Assembly: GCA_950295325.1 (NCBI GenBank)
Contig: OX485804.1
Span: 15,128,001 to 15,192,000 of the forward strand
Direction: 5' to 3'
DNA from: Polytrichum commune
Taxonomy: Eukaryota > Streptophyta > Polytrichopsida > Polytrichales > Polytrichaceae
Length of the DNA stretch: 64,000 bases
Shown here piece after piece: positions 24,151 to 63,705 of this stretch. Under the pieces are notes generated by a model, which saw nothing but the letters and a program-made list of their open reading frames with translations, did no database searches and was not told the DNA's origin. The position numbers were made by a program, and so were the translations under genes. Numbering within the stretch: the first letter of the stretch is position 1; every line of letters starts with the position of its first letter.

Positions 24151-24600
24151 GTTATGTCCAAAAAAATTCTTGGACATCAGAGTTATCCGCAAACTCCCTT
24201 AAGGAGGGACGGAGTTATGGGTTTGATCCTTCTTTGAGATTAAAAGCTTGTTAGCTCATTGTACATTGGAGCATATTTTGAAAGTTGGTTGAAAAATTTG
24301 GAACCTCCTCTTCCCACCTCTCAAACTTTGAGAGTACTTTAGGATCTAAAATTAAGGTATGCGCATGGGACCCATCATCTTGAATCCTAGGTTGGCCTAT
24401 GCAAAGCTAACTTGCCCCACCCATCATAGTAGGACAAGGGAGAAACCCGTTTTTAAGGAGCCTGTCAGCCATAAACCCCCACCCTTATGCGTCGTAATCC
24501 GGATGAGAGCTTATGGCTCACATGTACTTACTCCGCCCGTTCTTCTCCTTAGGTTTGCTGCTCAATGTCCCCACAATATAACTCTCAAGCATGCAATTAT

Positions 24601-24641
24601 TTTATTCAAAGACCCTTGGTTAACAAGTATTTAGAAATACT
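24601..24641 (-). promoter_or_regulatory. LTR-1 polyadenylation signal with upstream hairpin
   Basis: On the minus strand AATAAA occupies 24606-24601. About 19 nt upstream is a hairpin with stem AGTATT/AATACT (24641-24626). The same arrangement occurs in three other LTRs of the family. Confidence 0.6.
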
Positions 24642-25066
24642 CGCCTCCCCTAGGTCAAGGTCAAATGCAATCATCCATCACTCTTCAACCATCCCACACC
24701 TAAACCCTAAACCCTCCTACATTGAACTACACTAAATAAGTCTAAAACCAACACCGAACTTAATTAGTCGGCTCAGTTTCCCTTTCCTATCTCCAATTAA
24801 CCAACTAATTCAGATGTGGCCATAAACCTTCCTACCACCTACATACCACTGCTCAAGCCTAATAGCTACCTCCTTCCAGGCTAACATGGACTTCCCTCGC
24901 TCTTGGTCTCCCCATTCGCTTTCCAGCCTCATGTGAGGCCAAACCACCCACCCTTAAGCGTCCTAGTCCGGGTGAGGGAATGAGGATCACATTCATGTTC
25001 ACATAACTCCCTTTTACCAATCTTCGGAAAACTCTGTTTCGATTCCCATTAATTATTGTACACCTT

Positions 25067-25104
25067 TTTATTCCATAATGAGAGTACAAGCATTAAAAAA
25101 TGCT
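25067..25104 (-). promoter_or_regulatory. LTR-2 polyadenylation signal with upstream hairpin
   Basis: On the minus strand AATAAA (25072-25067) follows a hairpin with stem AGCATT/AATGCT (25104-25089), separated by about 16 nt. Confidence 0.6.
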
Positions 25105-25311
25105 CTTTTCTAATTACCCCTTCCCCCCTACACTAGTTCACACTCAAAACCCCAACTCATTACCAACTCTCATCCCCCTAGGCCACCCGCTAATTTATGT
25201 GAAATCCAATTCCCCTAATACCCTTGGCCATTGCCCTTCTCATACCCGGTCGAGCTTAAGACCGGGCCCATACCCGGGTAGATAACCAGCAAAAAAAAGA
25301 GAGTAGATAAT

Positions 25312-25846
25312 CACCTCCCACGGCCAAGCAGCCAACCTTTAAACTCTGAAACAGTAGCTAGTTACCTCGGCCACGGCCAAGTAGCCAACCTCTAAACTCT
25401 GAAACAGTAGATCGTCACCTCCCACGGCCAAACATCCAGCCTCTGAACTCTGAAACAGTAGCTAGTTACCTCGGCCATGACCAAGCAGCCAACCTCTAAA
25501 CTCTGAAACAGTAGATAGTCACCTCCCACGGCCAAACAGCCAACCTCTGAACTATGAAATAGTAGCTAGTTACCTCCCACGGCCAAGCAGCCAGCCTCTG
25601 AACTCTGAAACAGTAGATAGTCACCCCCCACGGCCAAACAGCCAACCTCTGAACTCTGAAACAGTAGCTAGTTACCTCGGCCACGGCCAAGCAGCCAACC
25701 TCTAAACTCTGAAACAGTAGATAGTCACCCCCCACGGCCAAACAGCCAGCCTCTGAACTCTGAAACAGTAGCTAGTTACCTCGGCCACGGCCAAGCAGCC
25801 AACCTCTAAACTCTGAAACAGTAGATAGTCACCTCCCACAGCCCAG
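25312..25846. repeat. Tandem array with alternating 53- and 51-bp units
   Basis: About ten units share the core CTCTGAAACAGTAG, which starts at 25344, 25397, 25448, 25501, 25552, 25603, 25654, 25707, 25758 and 25811. Spacings are 53, 51, 53, 51, 51, 51, 53, 51 and 53. One unit type carries GCTAGTTACCTCGGCCACGG and the other GATAGTCACCTCCCACGG, giving a 104-bp dimeric higher-order repeat in most of the array. It lies inside LTR-2. Confidence 0.92.
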
Positions 25847-25998
25847 CAGCCGCTAATTAAGCCCCAGCCTTAAAACTAAGGCCCTTAACTAATTTTCCCT
25901 ACCTAATTCCGCTAATGTCATTAAGTTCCCTAACTAATTTCCCTACCTAATTCCACTAAGTTTCCCCCCTAATCCAATATATTTTCTACCACCCTACA

Positions 25999-27370: not shown

Positions 27371-28744
27371 TGTGAGCCCAAAATGAGGTACTCACATGTG
27401 TGTTAGATCTTAAAAGTTGTTAGGATTTGAATTGGTATTTATTTTGTTATTCCAAAACATTAAAAAGAGTGAATTTTGGGTTGGGGCGTGGTTTTGACCT
27501 TTGGCTTGGATTTTATCTGGGTTAGTTTGATGAGGTAGAGTAATTAATTAGGGAATTAGGTTAATGAGTTTTTTTGGGATTAGTTTTGGTTAGCTTGTTG
27601 GGATTAGGGGTTAGAGTTAAGGGTTAGGTAGGGCAGCCAAAAAACTTAAGGGTGGGATTTCCTTATTAGGCTCATGCACTGTTCAATTAAGGGTTGTGGC
27701 CTCCTTGGAAGGGATGGGCTCTGGATTTGCGGGGGGTGAGTTACTGGTCCCAAAAGGCCCTCGGCCAGGGGCTTCGAGCTCTCTCTCCGAACTGTGAACG
27801 AGCTGCAGGGGCGGCGGCCGGAGATGGCCGGGCCACCAGGCACACGAGGCACACATTAAGGGCAACATTGGGGGGGAAATCTGACTTGAATCCAGAAGGG
27901 AGCACATTGAAGAGGTCGCCGAAATGGGTCGGAGAAAATACTGAGAGTGCTTCAAATCAGGAAAGTGGCACTCCTGGATTGAGTTTGAAGCAGGAAACAA
28001 ATGGAGGATTGAAAGGGGCAGCAATAGAATTTTAGGGCCGCATTGTTCCAGATTAATGCTTAATCTTCGGGAGACCAAAGGAACCTGCTAAAGGGAGTTC
28101 GAATGAAACGCTAGGCCCTGAATTCAGGCTAAGGGGGACTCGGAGACTTACATCTCAATCGGACATGTGGAAGCTAGCAGTTGGGCTTAACTGCTGCCAC
28201 CGGCAACAGCCTGGGATCAGGTTCAGTAGCGAGGGTACTCTGCTCTGTGTGTGGCCGGGCCGGTGCAGCCATCGGCTGACCCCGAGGAGGGAGTGACGGG
28301 TGATGACGGGCTCGTCACCCAAGGGAACAACGTAGAATTGCTGGAAGGTTGGGAATACTGAAGGCCGTTAGCCTAGCTCAACTTAAGTTGTTTAATGCCG
28401 TGCATCAATGGGCCAAGGGGTTTGGGCTGGTAATAGGGGAAACCCAACCGGAAGGTTGAAATGGACTTGAATAAGCATAGTTAGGGGAGAGTTTTGGGAT
28501 CCTTGGCTAGGTGGGTGAGATTGTTTAGTTACTAAGTGTGGGATTAGTGTGAGTGAAGCAAGGCAAGGTTAGAAAAGCATTCTTAAATGCTTGTAACTCT
28601 TGTCATGGAATAAAATAAGTGTTATTAATGCCACTATGGGACGGGTCATAGCAACCATACAAGGTTGACAACGGAATCAATACATGTGCATCACCAGCCT
28701 TCCCCCGGACTACTACACATAAGGGTGGAAGGTTTGGCCTCACA
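27371..28744 (+). mobile_element. Solo LTR (LTR-3) nested inside LTR-1
   Basis: A 1374-bp LTR reading rightwards. It starts TGTGAGCCCAAAATGAGG and ends AGGTTTGGCCTCACA. A TATA-like ATTAAAAAGAGTGAA lies about 90 bp from the start (near 27460). AATAAA (28609-28614) lies 130 bp from the end. The flanks CATAC (27366-27370) and CTCAC (28745-28749) match at only 3 of 5 bases, so the target duplication is degraded or one boundary is off. It separates the middle part of LTR-1 from its 5' part. Confidence 0.75.
28575..28614 (+). promoter_or_regulatory. LTR-3 polyadenylation signal with upstream hairpin
   Basis: A hairpin with stem AAGCATT/AATGCTT (28575-28592) is followed 16 nt later by AATAAA (28609-28614). 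Confidence 0.6.
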
Positions 28745-32542: not shown

Positions 32543-32786
32543 GAATCAAACAATGTCAGGAGCTTGATCTCAAAAGTATGTAATTCAATTGCTTCAATTC
32601 CAGCATGCTCCTTTGTCCGGGTTGGATTCCACATGTTGTTGTGTTTTGTGTGTTGCATTATGAATCTAGTTTACACTCACATAAACCCTCACACAACTCT
32701 CAATCTGCATTACACTCACATAAACCCTCACACACCAATGCTCACACACTCACATCCTCACACCAAACCCTCACACACCTAACCTG

Positions 32787-33745
32787 CTTAAGAATCAACC
32801 TCACCCCTCTCAGCAATGCTAACCCTGCAACAAAAAAGCATTAGCATGCTAACATGACTTAAGAATTTGCCTCACCCCTCTCAGCATGCTAATCCTGCAA
32901 CAAAAAAACATTAGCATGCTAACATGACTTAAGAATCTGCCTCACCCCTCTCAGCATGCCTGCAACAAAAAAACATAAGCATGCTAACATGACTTAAGAA
33001 CCTGCCTCACCCTCTCAGCATGCTAACCCTACAACAAAAAAACATTAGCATGCTAACATGACTTAAGAATCTGCCTCACCCTCTCAGCATGGTTTAGGGT
33101 GCAACAAAAAACCATTAGCATGCTAACATGACTTAAGAATCTGCCTCACCCCTCTCAGCATGCTAACCCTGCAACAAAAAAACATTAGCATGCTAACATG
33201 ACTTAAGAATCTGCCTCACCCCTCTCAGCATGCTAACCCTGCAACAAAAAAGCATTAGCATGCTAACATGACTTAAGAATCTGCCTCACCCTCTCAGCAT
33301 GCTAACCCTGCAACAAAAAAACATTAGCATGCTAACATGACTTAAGAATCTGCCTCACCCTCTCAACATGGTTTAGGGTGCTACAAAAAAACATTAGCAT
33401 GCTAACATGACTTAAGAATCTGCCTCACCCTCTCAACATGGTTTAGGGTGCTACAAAAAAACATTAGCATGCTAACATGACTTAAGAATCTGCCTCACCC
33501 TCTCAGCATGGTTTAGGGTGCAACAAAAAACCATTAGCATGCTAACATGACTTAAGAATCTGCCTCACCCCTCTCAGCAATGCTAACCCTGCAACAAAAA
33601 AACATTAGCATGCTAACATGACTTAAGAATCTGCCTCACCCCTCTCAGCATGCTAACCCTGCAACAAAAACGATTAGCATGCTAACATGACTTAAGAATC
33701 TGCCTCACCCCTCTCAGCATGTTAACCCTGCAACAAAAAAACATG
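32787..33745. repeat. 70-bp minisatellite, about 14 units, inside the Harbinger element
   Basis: Units start with CTTAAGAATCTGCCTCACCC at 32787, 32858, 32928, 32993, 33062, 33132, 33202, 33272, 33341, 33411, 33481, 33551, 33622 and 33691; spacing is 65-71 bp. Each unit ends with ATTAGCATGCTAACATGA. Most carry GCATGCTAACCCTGCAAC in the middle; at least four (near 33090, 33368, 33438 and 33508) carry GGTTTAGGGTG there instead. A less ordered block of ACTCACATAAACCCTCACAC repeats precedes it (about 32665-32780). Confidence 0.95.
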
Positions 33746-33970
33746 ACTGATCTGATGTTAAGCTGGCTGCAGACTGATATGATGTTTAGTTGGCTGCAGT
33801 CTGGTATGATATTTAGTTGGTTGCAGACTGATATGATGTTTAGTTGGCTGCAGTCTGGTATGATATTTAGTTGGTTGCAGTCTGATCTGATGTTAACCTG
33901 GCTATTAATGTGGATGTTAATGTGGATGTTAATATGGGTCTTAATATGGATGTTAATCTGGATGTTAACC
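33746..33970. repeat. 27-bp then 12-bp tandem arrays
   Basis: About five 27-bp units alternate between GCAGACTGATATGATGTTT and GCAGTCTGGTATGATATTT, each followed by AGTTGG. They give way near 33900 to roughly 12-bp units of the form TGGATGTTAATA. The 27-bp period keeps one plus-strand frame open (33719-33973, a 9-residue repeat), which I regard as incidental. Confidence 0.88.
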
Positions 33971-34339: not shown

Positions 34340-35631
34340 TTAATTATTGATATTGAGACCCTTTTCATTCCACAAATGTTGAACCAAATCGTCGCGCAAA
34401 GAGTAATAACTTTCCGAGTCTTGCAGGTTGGATGTGCCAACTTGAAGGTCGTTGAAAGTGAAGCCCCGCCTCAATGTAGAGTGAGATGAGCTTGGAGCAT
34501 GTAGTACGGGAAGATCCTCCTCAGCCTCATCCTCAATGATCATATTATGCATAATGATACATGCATACATGACATCAGCCATATCATATGTGTTCCATAA
34601 TCTGCAAGGATGTGCAATCATAGACCACCTTGATTGCAATACACCGAAACATCTTTCCACATCTTTTCGGGCGGATTCTTGAGAAGCAGAGAAGTTGCTT
34701 TCTTTTTTGTCTTCCGGATCTTGTAGACTTTGCACGAAACAACTCCATTTAGGATAAATCCCTTCAGCAAGCAAATAGTATTTATCATACCAATTTCCAT
34801 TAACCCAAAAACCCACTCCATTTGCATGGCCAGTAAGCAGGTTCCGTACGAGAGGGCTTCTATCGAGAACATTAAAGTCATTATTCCCACCAGGAATGCC
34901 AAAGAATGCATGCCAAATCCACAACCTATAATCACACACTGCCTCCAAGATGATGGACCTATTTTTGTTCTTATCTTGATATGACCATTGCAAGGCAACC
35001 GGACATAGTTTCCATTTCCAATGCATGCAGTCAATACTACCAAACATGCCGGGCCACCCCCTATCTTGGTTCACGGTCATTTGGGTCACAATGTCATTAT
35101 GAGTGGGTTGACGTAAGTACTCATGTTCAAAACACCTACGAACCCCCCTGTACCAACGCAACATGGATTCTCGAGCAATGCTAGGGCCATCCGACAATAT
35201 TCTTCTTGCGCCTTGGCAGGTGTACCAAGCGACAGCATGCGCATTGCAGCTATAGTTTTTTGCAATGATGACAACCCAATAGCACCAGCACAATTTGTTT
35301 TCTGCTCAAAGTAATCATCACTTGAACACACAACATCGTGCAATCGCAAAAAAAGACACTTCCGCATCCTATAAACCTCGCGAAATGAGGCTGCATCAAA
35401 TACGGGTGTTGTGTAGAAGTAATCATTGTACAACAATTCAGCATGAAACAACGCAAGTCTATCTTTGTTTGGTTGTCTACCTGGTCGACTACCACCTCTT
35501 TGAATTGGTTCATCATCTGATGAGTCTAAATGATTCATGTACACTAATTGGTTCATCATGTATTCTTCTTCCTCGTCATCTTCTAGGTTGTCCCTAATAC
35601 TCTGGTTATAAGCCCTCCACTGCTCATACAT
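34340..35631 (-). pseudogene. PIF/Harbinger transposase with one frameshift
   Basis: A DDE nuclease of the HARBI1/DDE_4 type that would cut and rejoin the element at TWA sites. The N-terminal part (35631 to about 35190) starts MYEQWRAYNQ and includes an acidic stretch and the conserved CAGAIGLSSLQKTIAAMRML. The C-terminal part (about 35187 to 34340) carries the catalytic motifs: first Asp in FGSIDCMHW (codon at 35032-35030), second Asp in GGNNDFNVLDRSP (34879-34877), and Glu in SARKDVERCFGVLQSRW (34657-34655). The two parts are in different frames; the switch lies at 35184-35192, in a run where one G appears to be lost. No stop codons occur otherwise. Estimated intact length is about 430 residues, normal for plant PIF transposases. 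Confidence 0.92.
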
Positions 35632-61984: not shown

Positions 61985-62091
61985 AAGTTAATAATTCTTA
62001 AATGGTTCCTTTTCTGATTAACTCACTTCTCCGAGGATATGAAACACACGATGAGTACAAGATGGTTAGCAAATCCAAATCAAAGCCGTAG
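61985..62091 (+). repeat. Left half of the dispersed repeat split by a solo LTR
   Basis: It matches about 30190-30290 (TTCTTAAATGGTT; ATGAGTACAAGATGGTTAGC against TTAGTACAAAATGGGTAGC). It ends at the LTR target site CGTAG. Confidence 0.65.
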
Positions 62092-62173
62092 TGTGAGCCC
62101 AATTTGGTGCCCACATGTGCTCTCAACCTTTACAATTCATTACTTAAGAATGTTAGTTTGATTTTTTGTCAAT

Positions 62174-62182
62174 TATATAAAA
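62174..62182 (+). promoter_or_regulatory. TATA box of LTR-4
   Basis: TATATAAAA followed by ATAAAAAGAGTGAG. The AAAAAGAGTGA block is also present about 85-95 bp from the start of LTR-2 and LTR-3. Confidence 0.55.
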
Positions 62183-63282
62183 ACATAAAAAGAGTGAGTA
62201 TCTCTAGTTTAGTTGAAAGTAGAGGTGAGGCTAGGAGATGAGCATTGTAGTGTTGGACTAGGGGGTGAACTAATTAGAAACGATGCAAGTGTTTTGATTG
62301 AGGCTTGCAAGCCTTTGAAAAGGAGCTGGGTTTTAGTTCGGTTAATTAGGCACCATGACTATTCATTTAAGGGTGATAGTTCAGTGCAACCTAGAAAAAG
62401 TAGGATCAGGAGACCAGCGGCGGTTGGAAGGCGCTAGGCCTATCGGTTGTTCGCTCTCTCTACACAGGCAGGAGTTAGTACCAAGCGGTGGAGGAGGTTG
62501 CTGCCGGATGGGCGAAGCAGCTCTGAGATACCAAGGATTCGAGGATTTTGAGGCTAGCGAGGGGGAAAACCAGCAAGGGCCTGGGAGCTGAGCTCTCAGG
62601 CTTGAAAACTCAATGCTGTGAATGGTGAGAGAAAAATGGCACAGAAGTGTGAAGGCAGCCAACACAGAGAGGGCGGCAAACATGGCATGCACGGGCATCC
62701 AATCCCACTGCCAGAAAGGCTACAGGTCCCTCAACGAGGGGCGGTAAGCTTAGAGGGAGAATCTTGGGAACTTGGAGGCAGCTGATCCTGGGTGGACTCC
62801 GAATTGTGAAAGCAATGGGAAATGCGACCAGAACAAGAGTCTACTGGCGTGCTACAGGTGGAGGCTAAATTCAGCATTGCAATGTTGGTGACCAGGAGAG
62901 GATTGGGTGGCGACCCTGGAATCAAGTCCAAGCGGCAATGTGGTTCGGCTAGCTAAACAGATTCAGAGGAGTCGGAAGGGCAGGCTACTAGATCGAGCAC
63001 GCAAGGCCCAACTTTGACCTCAGAGCTCGGAGGCTCGGCCGACTGTGGGAGGGTACCATCCTGGAGGGGCTCCTGGGCCGAACACTGCTGGAATGGGTGA
63101 CTGGGTGACTGAACTACCGGGTTGATTAAATAGATTAAGAGGGAGGGTTAGCATAAGAACAGGGGGATTAGGCTTAGGCTGGCTAGGCAGGCCAAGCAAC
63201 CTAATGCTAAGCTTGATTTGGTGTGTGGAGGTTATTGAGAATCAACCACTTAACTTGTGGTGGCAATAGCTAGGATAGAAGG

Positions 63283-63319
63283 AGTGTTCTTGAACACTCA
63301 CCCTTTGTGGTTGAATAAA
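63283..63319 (+). promoter_or_regulatory. LTR-4 polyadenylation signal with upstream hairpin
   Basis: A perfect stem AGTGTTC/GAACACT with a 2-nt loop (63283-63298) is followed 15 nt later by AATAAA (63314-63319). Confidence 0.6.
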
Positions 63320-63455
63320 GAGTTTTGGTTTTCATAGTTCAATTAAAGAATTATTGAGGGTGCCAATTCCATGGGTATAAGGGCAACTGAAATGTATGTG
63401 AGCTTCAGGCACTCACCCGGACCACGACGCTTAAGGGTGAGTGTTTTGGCTGACA

Positions 63456-63705
63456 CGTAGCCTCTTCCTCATATTTTTGGAACTTGTATGAACATATTAA
63501 TCATCATTAAAGTGAAGATTCTCATGCTCATTAAATGTTCATATAACCCCCTCCCCCCAAATTATGCTGACCATTGAACCTAAAATGGTTAACGTATTTT
63601 GAAACATATATTCCAATGTCTTTCAAACACATGTTGTTTTGGTATCTGTTTTGGAAACCACACTAAACCACATACCACTCAAATATAGGTGTCCGGATAA
63701 AAAAT
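63456..63705 (+). repeat. Right half of the dispersed repeat split by a solo LTR
   Basis: It matches about 30285-30530 (CTCATATTTTTGGA; GAAGATTCTCATGCTCAT; CACATACCACTCAAATATAGG). Confidence 0.7.

What the first reader, a model, noticed from the sequence alone, without database searches (positions are those of the whole stretch)
63283..63319. Covarying RNA hairpin just upstream of the polyadenylation signal in four LTRs
Read in LTR sense, the stems are AGTGTT/AACACT (63283), AGCATT/AATGCT (28576 and 25104 minus) and AGTATT/AATACT (24641 minus). Positions 3 and 4 change on both sides so that pairing is kept. All sit 15-19 nt before AATAAA, and AATAAA lies 130-138 bp before the LTR end. Compensatory change indicates selection on RNA structure, perhaps for polyadenylation or for suppressing it in the 5' LTR. 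I know of no description of this for a plant LTR family.
Basis: partly seen in the sequence, partly recalled or inferred. Interest (0 to 1): 0.75.

Follow-up and report, generated by a model that had tools for sequence, protein, structure and literature searches.

The report
Two paired RNA hairpins in LTRs
A large family of jumping genes in what looks like a plant genome carries a short hairpin just before its message-ending signal, and the two arms of the hairpin have changed together through evolution, which suggests that the base pairing itself matters, although what it does is not yet shown.

Summary
In detail: all four hairpins are where stated, 15-19 nt before AATAAA, which ends 130-138 bp before the LTR end. 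The elements are LTRs: TG...CA ends, 5-bp target duplications (also at the 63283 copy), one locus with two LTR ends 98.5% alike, gag in another. Against a tree-based null without the four window copies, the two variable stem pairs covary: 56 and 58 of 64 Watson-Crick, p 0.00025 and 0.00075. It repeats in 40 unseen copies, p 0.0003 each. Pairs just outside the 6-bp stem show nothing. In blind scans the two pairs rank first and second of 19,701 column pairs, but with E 0.8-1.0, so the claim rests on their being named beforehand. A second hairpin in U5 has one covarying pair. AATAAA stays mostly unpaired, so HIV-like masking is not supported. RNA versus DNA-level pairing is unsettled: G-U is not clearly favoured over A-C. 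Best reading: a structured 3'-end RNA signal of an LTR-retrotransposon family, a new variant of a kind known from retroviruses; the function is inferred.

The parts
62092..63455 (+). solo LTR carrying the finding's hairpin; TGTGAGCCC...GGCTGACA, flanked by CGTAG at 62087-62091 and 63456-63460
63283..63298 (+). HP1 hairpin AGTGTT-CTTG-AACACT (one more G-C pair outside)
63314..63319 (+). AATAAA, 15 nt after HP1
63410..63443 (+). HP2, U5 hairpin CACTCACCC/GGGTGAGTG with a conserved 16-nt loop; ends 12 nt before the LTR end
27371..28744 (+). LTR with HP1 at 28576; start inferred from the TGTGAGCCC motif, no exact target duplication found
28576..28591 (+). HP1 hairpin AGCATT-CTTA-AATGCT; AATAAA at 28609-28614
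28698..28731 (+). HP2, U5 hairpin (one bulge or mismatch)
25089..25104 (-). HP1 hairpin AGCATT-TTTT-AATGCT; AATAAA at 25072-25067
24945..24978 (-). HP2, U5 hairpin; LTR end at 24932
24626..24641 (-). HP1 hairpin AGTATT-TCTA-AATACT; AATAAA at 24606-24601
24476..24509 (-). HP2, U5 hairpin; LTR end at 24463

Best explanation
HP1 is an RNA hairpin (6 bp, 4-nt loop, frame AG-YR-TT-nnnn-AA-YR-CT) in the LTRs of a large LTR-retrotransposon family, kept by selection on base pairing in the copies that replicated. Shown: it stands at a fixed place in 48 of 79 sampled H-type LTRs exactly and in 19 more with one anchor changed; its two variable pairs covary beyond a tree-based null; the pairs just outside the stem do not. 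Inferred: it works in the transcript as part of the 3'-end signal. In many copies it is followed at once by UGU or UGUA, then 15-22 nt on by an AAUAAA predicted to be unpaired, then by GU-rich sequence. It would fix the spacing of the upstream and near-upstream elements so that cleavage in the 3' LTR is efficient and well placed. A second hairpin (HP2), in U5 and ending 12-13 nt before the LTR end, would belong to the 5' leader beside the primer binding site.
For: Stem pairs 3 and 4: 56 and 58 of 64 Watson-Crick, null means 32.9 and 45.1, p 0.00025 and 0.00075, window copies excluded. Replicate in 40 unseen copies (39 rows after one near-duplicate): pair 3 has 34 Watson-Crick, 4 G-U, 0 A-C of 38; pair 4 has 37 of 38; p 0.0003 each. 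In 111 combined rows 6 (pair 3) and 7 (pair 4) changes of both arms on one branch go from Watson-Crick to Watson-Crick. Pair 0 outside and pair 7 inside the stem give p 0.60 and 0.61. Anchor columns changed 0-8 times against a mean of 13.1 per column (a set that includes the window copies). Genome-wide AGYRTTn4AAYRCTTGT: 1,443 places, reversed control 41; after removal of 29 places of one other repeat 1,249 of 1,414 are Watson-Crick at both pairs. Of 80 motif copies 47 are followed at once by TGT, 34 have TGTA within 8 nt, 64 an AATAAA at 15-22 nt. GU-rich stretches after AATAAA are seen directly. In the 60 of 119 copies with the YR frame and an exact AATAAA the six pairs have mean probability 0.73 and AATAAA is unpaired at 0.69 against 0.42.
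Against: No transcript, cleavage-site or probing data. Blind all-pairs scans put the two pairs first and second but with E 0.77 and 1.03 (111 rows), 0.41 and 0.49 (103 rows), or 0.5 and 1.0 (68 rows, window copies in); with the interrupted copies kept in the first sample they rank fourth and fifth, E 2.8 and 4.1. Same-branch changes at pair 3 do not exceed the null in the combined set (6 against 3.57, p 0.11). Stem pairs 1 and 2 show no significant covariation (p 0.15 and 0.09). G-U is not clearly favoured over A-C: 93 against 72 places at pairs 3-4, and at pair 2 the excess over control is 52 for G-U but 148 for A-C. Transversion stems are near background (45 against 27, 15 of the 45 being one repeated 19-mer), so sequence as well as pairing seems constrained. 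The isolated stem is weak (mean -2.5 kcal/mol, range -5.8 to 0). 16 of 80 motif copies have no exact AATAAA within 40 nt. A search for retroposed copies ending in poly(A) found 0.
Confidence: 0.5

Rival explanations
1. HP1 is an RNA structure under selection for another step: repeated at both ends of the genomic RNA if it lies in R, it could serve first-strand transfer, packaging or translation rather than 3'-end formation.
For: The same covariation; a second hairpin with a covarying pair nearby in U5 suggests a structured leader.
Against: The spacing to AATAAA, 15-22 nt in the 64 of 80 motif copies that have an exact one, is not needed for such roles. Whether HP1 is in R is unknown.
Confidence: 0.22
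2. [quoted passage not shown]
For: Position next to AATAAA; elements with the signal in R face this problem (PMC3694450, passages).
Against: HIV-1's hairpin encompasses AAUAAA (PMC2645353, abstract); HP1 leaves it 15-22 nt away and mostly unpaired. If the signal is in U3 no repression is needed.
Confidence: 0.08
3. Paired changes come from template switching within a short palindrome during reverse transcription (quasi-palindrome correction, a mechanism I recall, from no call), with no selection on RNA pairing.
For: Changes of both arms on one branch are frequent at pair 4 (8 against 1.23 expected); the exchanges are transitions and transversion stems are near background.
Against: The stem neither grows nor shifts: pairs 0 and 7 do not covary, and the anchors are held while the rest of the segment changed much more, which needs selection anyway. 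G-U and A-C states exist, so not all changes are simultaneous.
Confidence: 0.1
4. A dyad-symmetric DNA site for a protein, for example a promoter factor, conserved at DNA level.
For: No clear excess of G-U over A-C genome-wide; middle positions are YR steps with transversion stems near background.
Against: Two half-sites for a dimer need not match each other base by base, yet the arms covary.
Confidence: 0.1

Closest known systems
HIV-1 poly(A) hairpin (PMC2645353, abstract)
   Same: RNA hairpin in the LTR at the polyadenylation signal
   Different: HIV-1's encompasses AAUAAA and represses 5' polyadenylation; HP1 lies upstream and leaves AAUAAA mostly free
R stem-loops of HML beta-retrovirus-like LTRs and HTLV-1 (PMC2664473, passages)
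   Same: LTR stem-loop tied to poly(A)-site geometry, seen by comparing LTRs
   Different: Those are reported to shorten the distance between AATAAA and the poly(A) site; HP1 is upstream of AATAAA, 6 bp, and supported by covariation
LTR models for animal Metaviridae and plant Pseudoviridae (PMC3601003, passages)
   Same: polyadenylation signal and short inverted repeats at the LTR ends
   Different: That study could not build models for plant Metaviridae because of LTR length variation; the passages I read mention no such hairpin
Plant non-chromovirus Ty3/gypsy elements (PMC6317226, PMC11963269, passages)
   Same: 5-bp TSD, tandem arrays; PBS that by recall does not look like the tRNA-Met type
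   Different: No reverse transcriptase was found here, so the lineage is unproven; arrays in L101-L103 lie inside the LTR rather than between pol and the 3' LTR

Membership tests
LTR retrotransposon | paired direct LTRs, TG...CA ends, 5-bp TSD | tested here: met
   L112: two LTR ends 98.5% alike over the 474 bp held, 8.5 kb apart; 5 of 5 solo LTRs read at both ends have exact 5-bp TSDs (L101-L103, L108, L109), as does the 63283 copy; the 28576, 25104m and 24641m copies gave no exact TSD
LTR retrotransposon | PBS next to the 5' LTR, gag and pol | tested here: inconclusive
   TAAATGGTGmGTCC right after the LTR end in L002, L081, L112 and L141; Retrotrans_gag E 4.7e-10 in L154; protease E 0.0048, below cut-off, in L112; no reverse transcriptase or integrase match in 37 ORF pieces of L112 and L154
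Ty3/gypsy non-chromovirus (Tat/Athila) lineage | reverse transcriptase placing it in the clade | tested here: inconclusive
   no reverse transcriptase found; resemblance of the PBS is recalled only
HIV-1-type poly(A) hairpin | AAUAAA within the hairpin | tested here: not met
   where an exact AATAAA is present it lies 15-22 nt downstream of the stem (64 of 80 motif copies) and is mostly unpaired
HIV-1-type poly(A) hairpin | represses 5' LTR polyadenylation | not testable with these tools
   needs transcript assays
Structured RNA element | pair covariation beyond phylogeny | tested here: met
   and replicate for pre-named pairs; blind scans rank them 1-2 but with E 0.4-1.0 and 4-5 with interrupted copies kept
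Structured RNA element | RNA-specific signature: G-U tolerated over A-C | tested here: inconclusive
   93 G-U against 72 A-C; pair 2 excess 52 against 148; combined sample 29 against 19
Known Rfam family | match at gathering score | tested here: not met
   0 matches in the window

The most novel reading that the evidence does not exclude
Plant LTR retrotransposons use a conserved RNA module with two hairpins under selection for pairing, one upstream of the poly(A) signal and one in U5 beside the primer site, to place the 3' end of the genomic RNA and organise its 5' leader; N-type relatives have swapped in a different short hairpin at the same place.
Probability: 0.4. Interest if true: 0.62.

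Novelty: new variant of a known kind. Interest (0 to 1): 0.47.

Why it matters
How LTR retrotransposons with identical LTRs make RNA that ends only at the 3' LTR is understood in a few retroviruses; I found no account of it for these plant elements. A short covarying hairpin at a fixed place before AATAAA, in a motif with over a thousand fully paired places in one genome, gives a precise and cheap target for reporter tests. It could also help to find and classify LTRs whose sequence has drifted too far for ordinary alignment.

Tried and rejected
A TATA box: TATAWA, TATAA and TATA counts show no peak in -420..0, so the start site and the R borders stay open. Occlusion of AATAAA by HP1: not supported. 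G-U against A-C as a test of RNA versus DNA: no clear answer. Retroposed copies with poly(A) tails to map the cleavage site: 0 found. Reverse transcriptase for the lineage: none in 37 ORF pieces. Sub-threshold Pfam hits to a defensin model, SLBB and an amine dehydrogenase domain are taken as chance. A hairpin before AATAAA at window 42840 minus looked similar but has no U5 block nearby.

Rows dropped: 8 of 79 H-type copies whose LTR looked interrupted (L048, L049, L061, L068, L076, L078, L080, L091, chosen by eye), 4 window copies, and 3 near-duplicates (64 of 67 used). In one search, only window copies and near-duplicates (39 of 40; 111 of 115). In one search, window copies and near-duplicates (111 of 115), and in its second scan also 8 rows under 45% identity to the column majority (103 of 107). 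One search used all 104 copies, window copies included. Samples: L001-L040 are the first 40 of the 100 places listed (1,748 in all); L041-L100 the first 60 not yet held of the 100 listed (1,039 in all, one mismatch allowed); L114-L153 follow in list order, leaving out the window places, those within L112 and L113, and one place that I overlooked. The genome-wide motif counts are not limited to LTRs and include other palindromic repeats.

Full report
What was checked. The four LTR ends align at 68% mean column identity, with AATAAA and a block CCGGAyyAngACgCwTAAGGGTG as shared landmarks. The genome (408 Mb, 64 contigs; the window lies in contig C2) holds a looser form of this block 1,748 times, with no reversed-pattern control match.

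What the elements are. Near-identical copies break off at TGTGAGCCC at one end and at ...CTCACA or ...GCTGACA at the other, with exact 5-bp target duplications in 5 of 5 copies read at both ends (L101-L103, L108, L109). The 63283 copy is a solo LTR, 62092-63455, with CGTAG on both sides; the other three window copies gave no exact duplication. L112 has two LTR ends 8.5 kb apart, 98.5% alike over the 474 bp held. TAAATGGTGmGTCC follows the LTR in L002, L081, L112 and L141, as a primer site would, and L154 has a gag domain (E 4.7e-10). No reverse transcriptase turned up in 37 ORF pieces, so a Ty3/gypsy non-chromovirus assignment is inference. That the host is a plant is inferred from a Plant_tran transposase in the window (E 1.8e-80).

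Two LTR types. Of 104 copies (4 window, 100 fetched), 79 are H-type and 25 N-type by the bases after the block. The finding's hairpin (HP1) is exact at its anchors in 48 of 79 H-type and 0 of 25 N-type copies, and has one anchor changed in 19 more H-type copies. In N-type copies a different short hairpin (AGCC-AAGA-GGCT and variants) stands about 5-7 nt before AATAAA in 12 of 25 by my reading of the folds; this was not tested statistically.

Covariation of HP1. With the middle two positions of each arm left free, 48 of 104 copies show AGnnTTn4AAnnCT, starting 126-141 nt before the block; 41 are Watson-Crick at both middle pairs, 3 have one G-U, 4 a mismatch, 2 of these of the kind left by CpG decay. 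I aligned H-type copies by sequence alone, built a tree from columns outside the hairpin and placed the inferred changes at random on its branches. With window copies excluded, pair 3 is Watson-Crick in 56 of 64 (null 32.9, p 0.00025) and pair 4 in 58 of 64 (null 45.1, p 0.00075); the pairs just outside the stem and just inside the loop give p 0.60 and 0.61. In 40 copies not seen before (39 rows), pair 3 is 34 Watson-Crick, 4 G-U, 0 A-C of 38 and pair 4 is 37 of 38, p 0.0003 each; same-branch changes are 3 (null 0.76, p 0.02) and 5 (null 0.62, p 0.0003). Combined, 111 rows: pairs 1 to 6 have p 0.15, 0.09, 0.0003, 0.0003, 0.0007 and 0.0023; same-branch changes exceed the null at pair 4 (8 against 1.23, p 0.0003) but not at pair 3 (6 against 3.57, p 0.11).

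Blind scans. A G-test with product correction over all column pairs ranks the two pairs first and second of 19,701 with all non-window rows, but with E 0.77 and 1.03, and 0.41 and 0.49 after a filter. In the first sample, window copies in, they rank first and second (E 0.5 and 1.0) without the interrupted copies and fourth and fifth (E 2.8 and 4.1) with them. The claim therefore stands on pre-named pairs plus a replicate, not on a blind discovery.

Genome-wide counts. AGYRTTn4AAYRCTTGT: 1,443 places, control 41. After removing 29 places of one other repeat, 165 of 1,414 depart from Watson-Crick at a middle pair and 1,249 do not. These copies are related and not all are proven LTRs, so the figure describes abundance, not independent events. 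Departures are 93 G-U and 72 A-C, and at pair 2 the excess over control is 52 G-U (139 less 87) against 148 A-C (208 less 60). Most departures are probably decay in dead copies, which is symmetric between strands; the test does not show an RNA-specific tolerance. Transversion stems are near background (45 against 27, 15 of the 45 being one repeated 19-mer), so the YR frame is itself constrained or has only drifted by transitions.

A second hairpin. The U5 block is part of a hairpin of 7-9 bp with a conserved 16-nt loop; several of its pairs were fixed by my search pattern and cannot be tested. The free pair at -5/24 is C-G in 56, A-T in 24, T-A in 11 and T-G in 10 of 104 copies; Watson-Crick plus G-U 101 of 104, null 78.1, p 0.0005; three slid partners give p 0.59 or more. 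The other free pairs in the stem give no significant Watson-Crick covariation (-4/23 p 0.90, -6/25 p 0.68, -7/26 p 0.11); -8/27 reaches p 0.018 only when G-U is counted. HP2 thus rests on one pair.

How it may work. HP1 is predicted to form (mean pair probability 0.73, median 0.91) and leaves AATAAA more open than its surroundings (0.69 against 0.42) in the 60 of 119 copies that have the YR frame and an exact AATAAA. Of 80 motif copies, 47 are followed at once by TGT, 34 have TGTA within 8 nt and 64 an AATAAA at 15-22 nt. Plant 3'-end formation uses a far-upstream and a near-upstream element; in mammals UGUA is the upstream element and its distance to the signal matters (PMC10082929, passages). 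The most likely role is to set this geometry in the 3' LTR. In RSV, MMTV and HTLV-1 the signal lies in U3, so repression in the 5' LTR is not needed (PMC3694450, passages); whether that holds here depends on the start site, which I could not place.

Known relatives. HIV-1's hairpin encompasses the signal (PMC2645353, abstract). HML and HTLV-1 stem-loops are reported to shorten the gap between signal and poly(A) site (PMC2664473, passages). A survey that modelled LTRs across clades could not model plant Metaviridae (PMC3601003, passages). Searches of the held PMC library listed no description of such a hairpin in a plant LTR; subscription papers are not covered, and I read only listings, passages and one abstract.

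Noticed in passing
L112 around 475-500, L154:20-45, and the U5 loop of the LTRs: The conserved U5 loop shares 5-6 nt of complementarity with the PBS-like stretch (GACGCA with TGCGTC; GGACT with AGTCC), a possible long-range pairing; only two examples, may be chance.
   Followed up: no
L101-L103, L107; window 25198-25955 and 32755-33780: Tandem arrays with units of about 39-104 bp; in L101-L103 they lie inside the LTR.
   Followed up: no
window 34343-35305 (minus): Open frame with a strong Plant_tran / DDE_Tnp_4 transposase match (E 1.8e-80).
   Followed up: no
G000, 29 places: AGCATTGGAAAACACTTGT (27 places, plus 2 of a one-base variant) recurs as another repeat that fits the hairpin frame with unpaired middle positions; removed from the counts.
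   Followed up: partly
N-type LTRs, e.g. L006, L007, L016: A different short hairpin before AATAAA in 12 of 25 copies, inner pair C-G in ten and A-T in two, suggests a replaced structure at the same place.
   Followed up: partly
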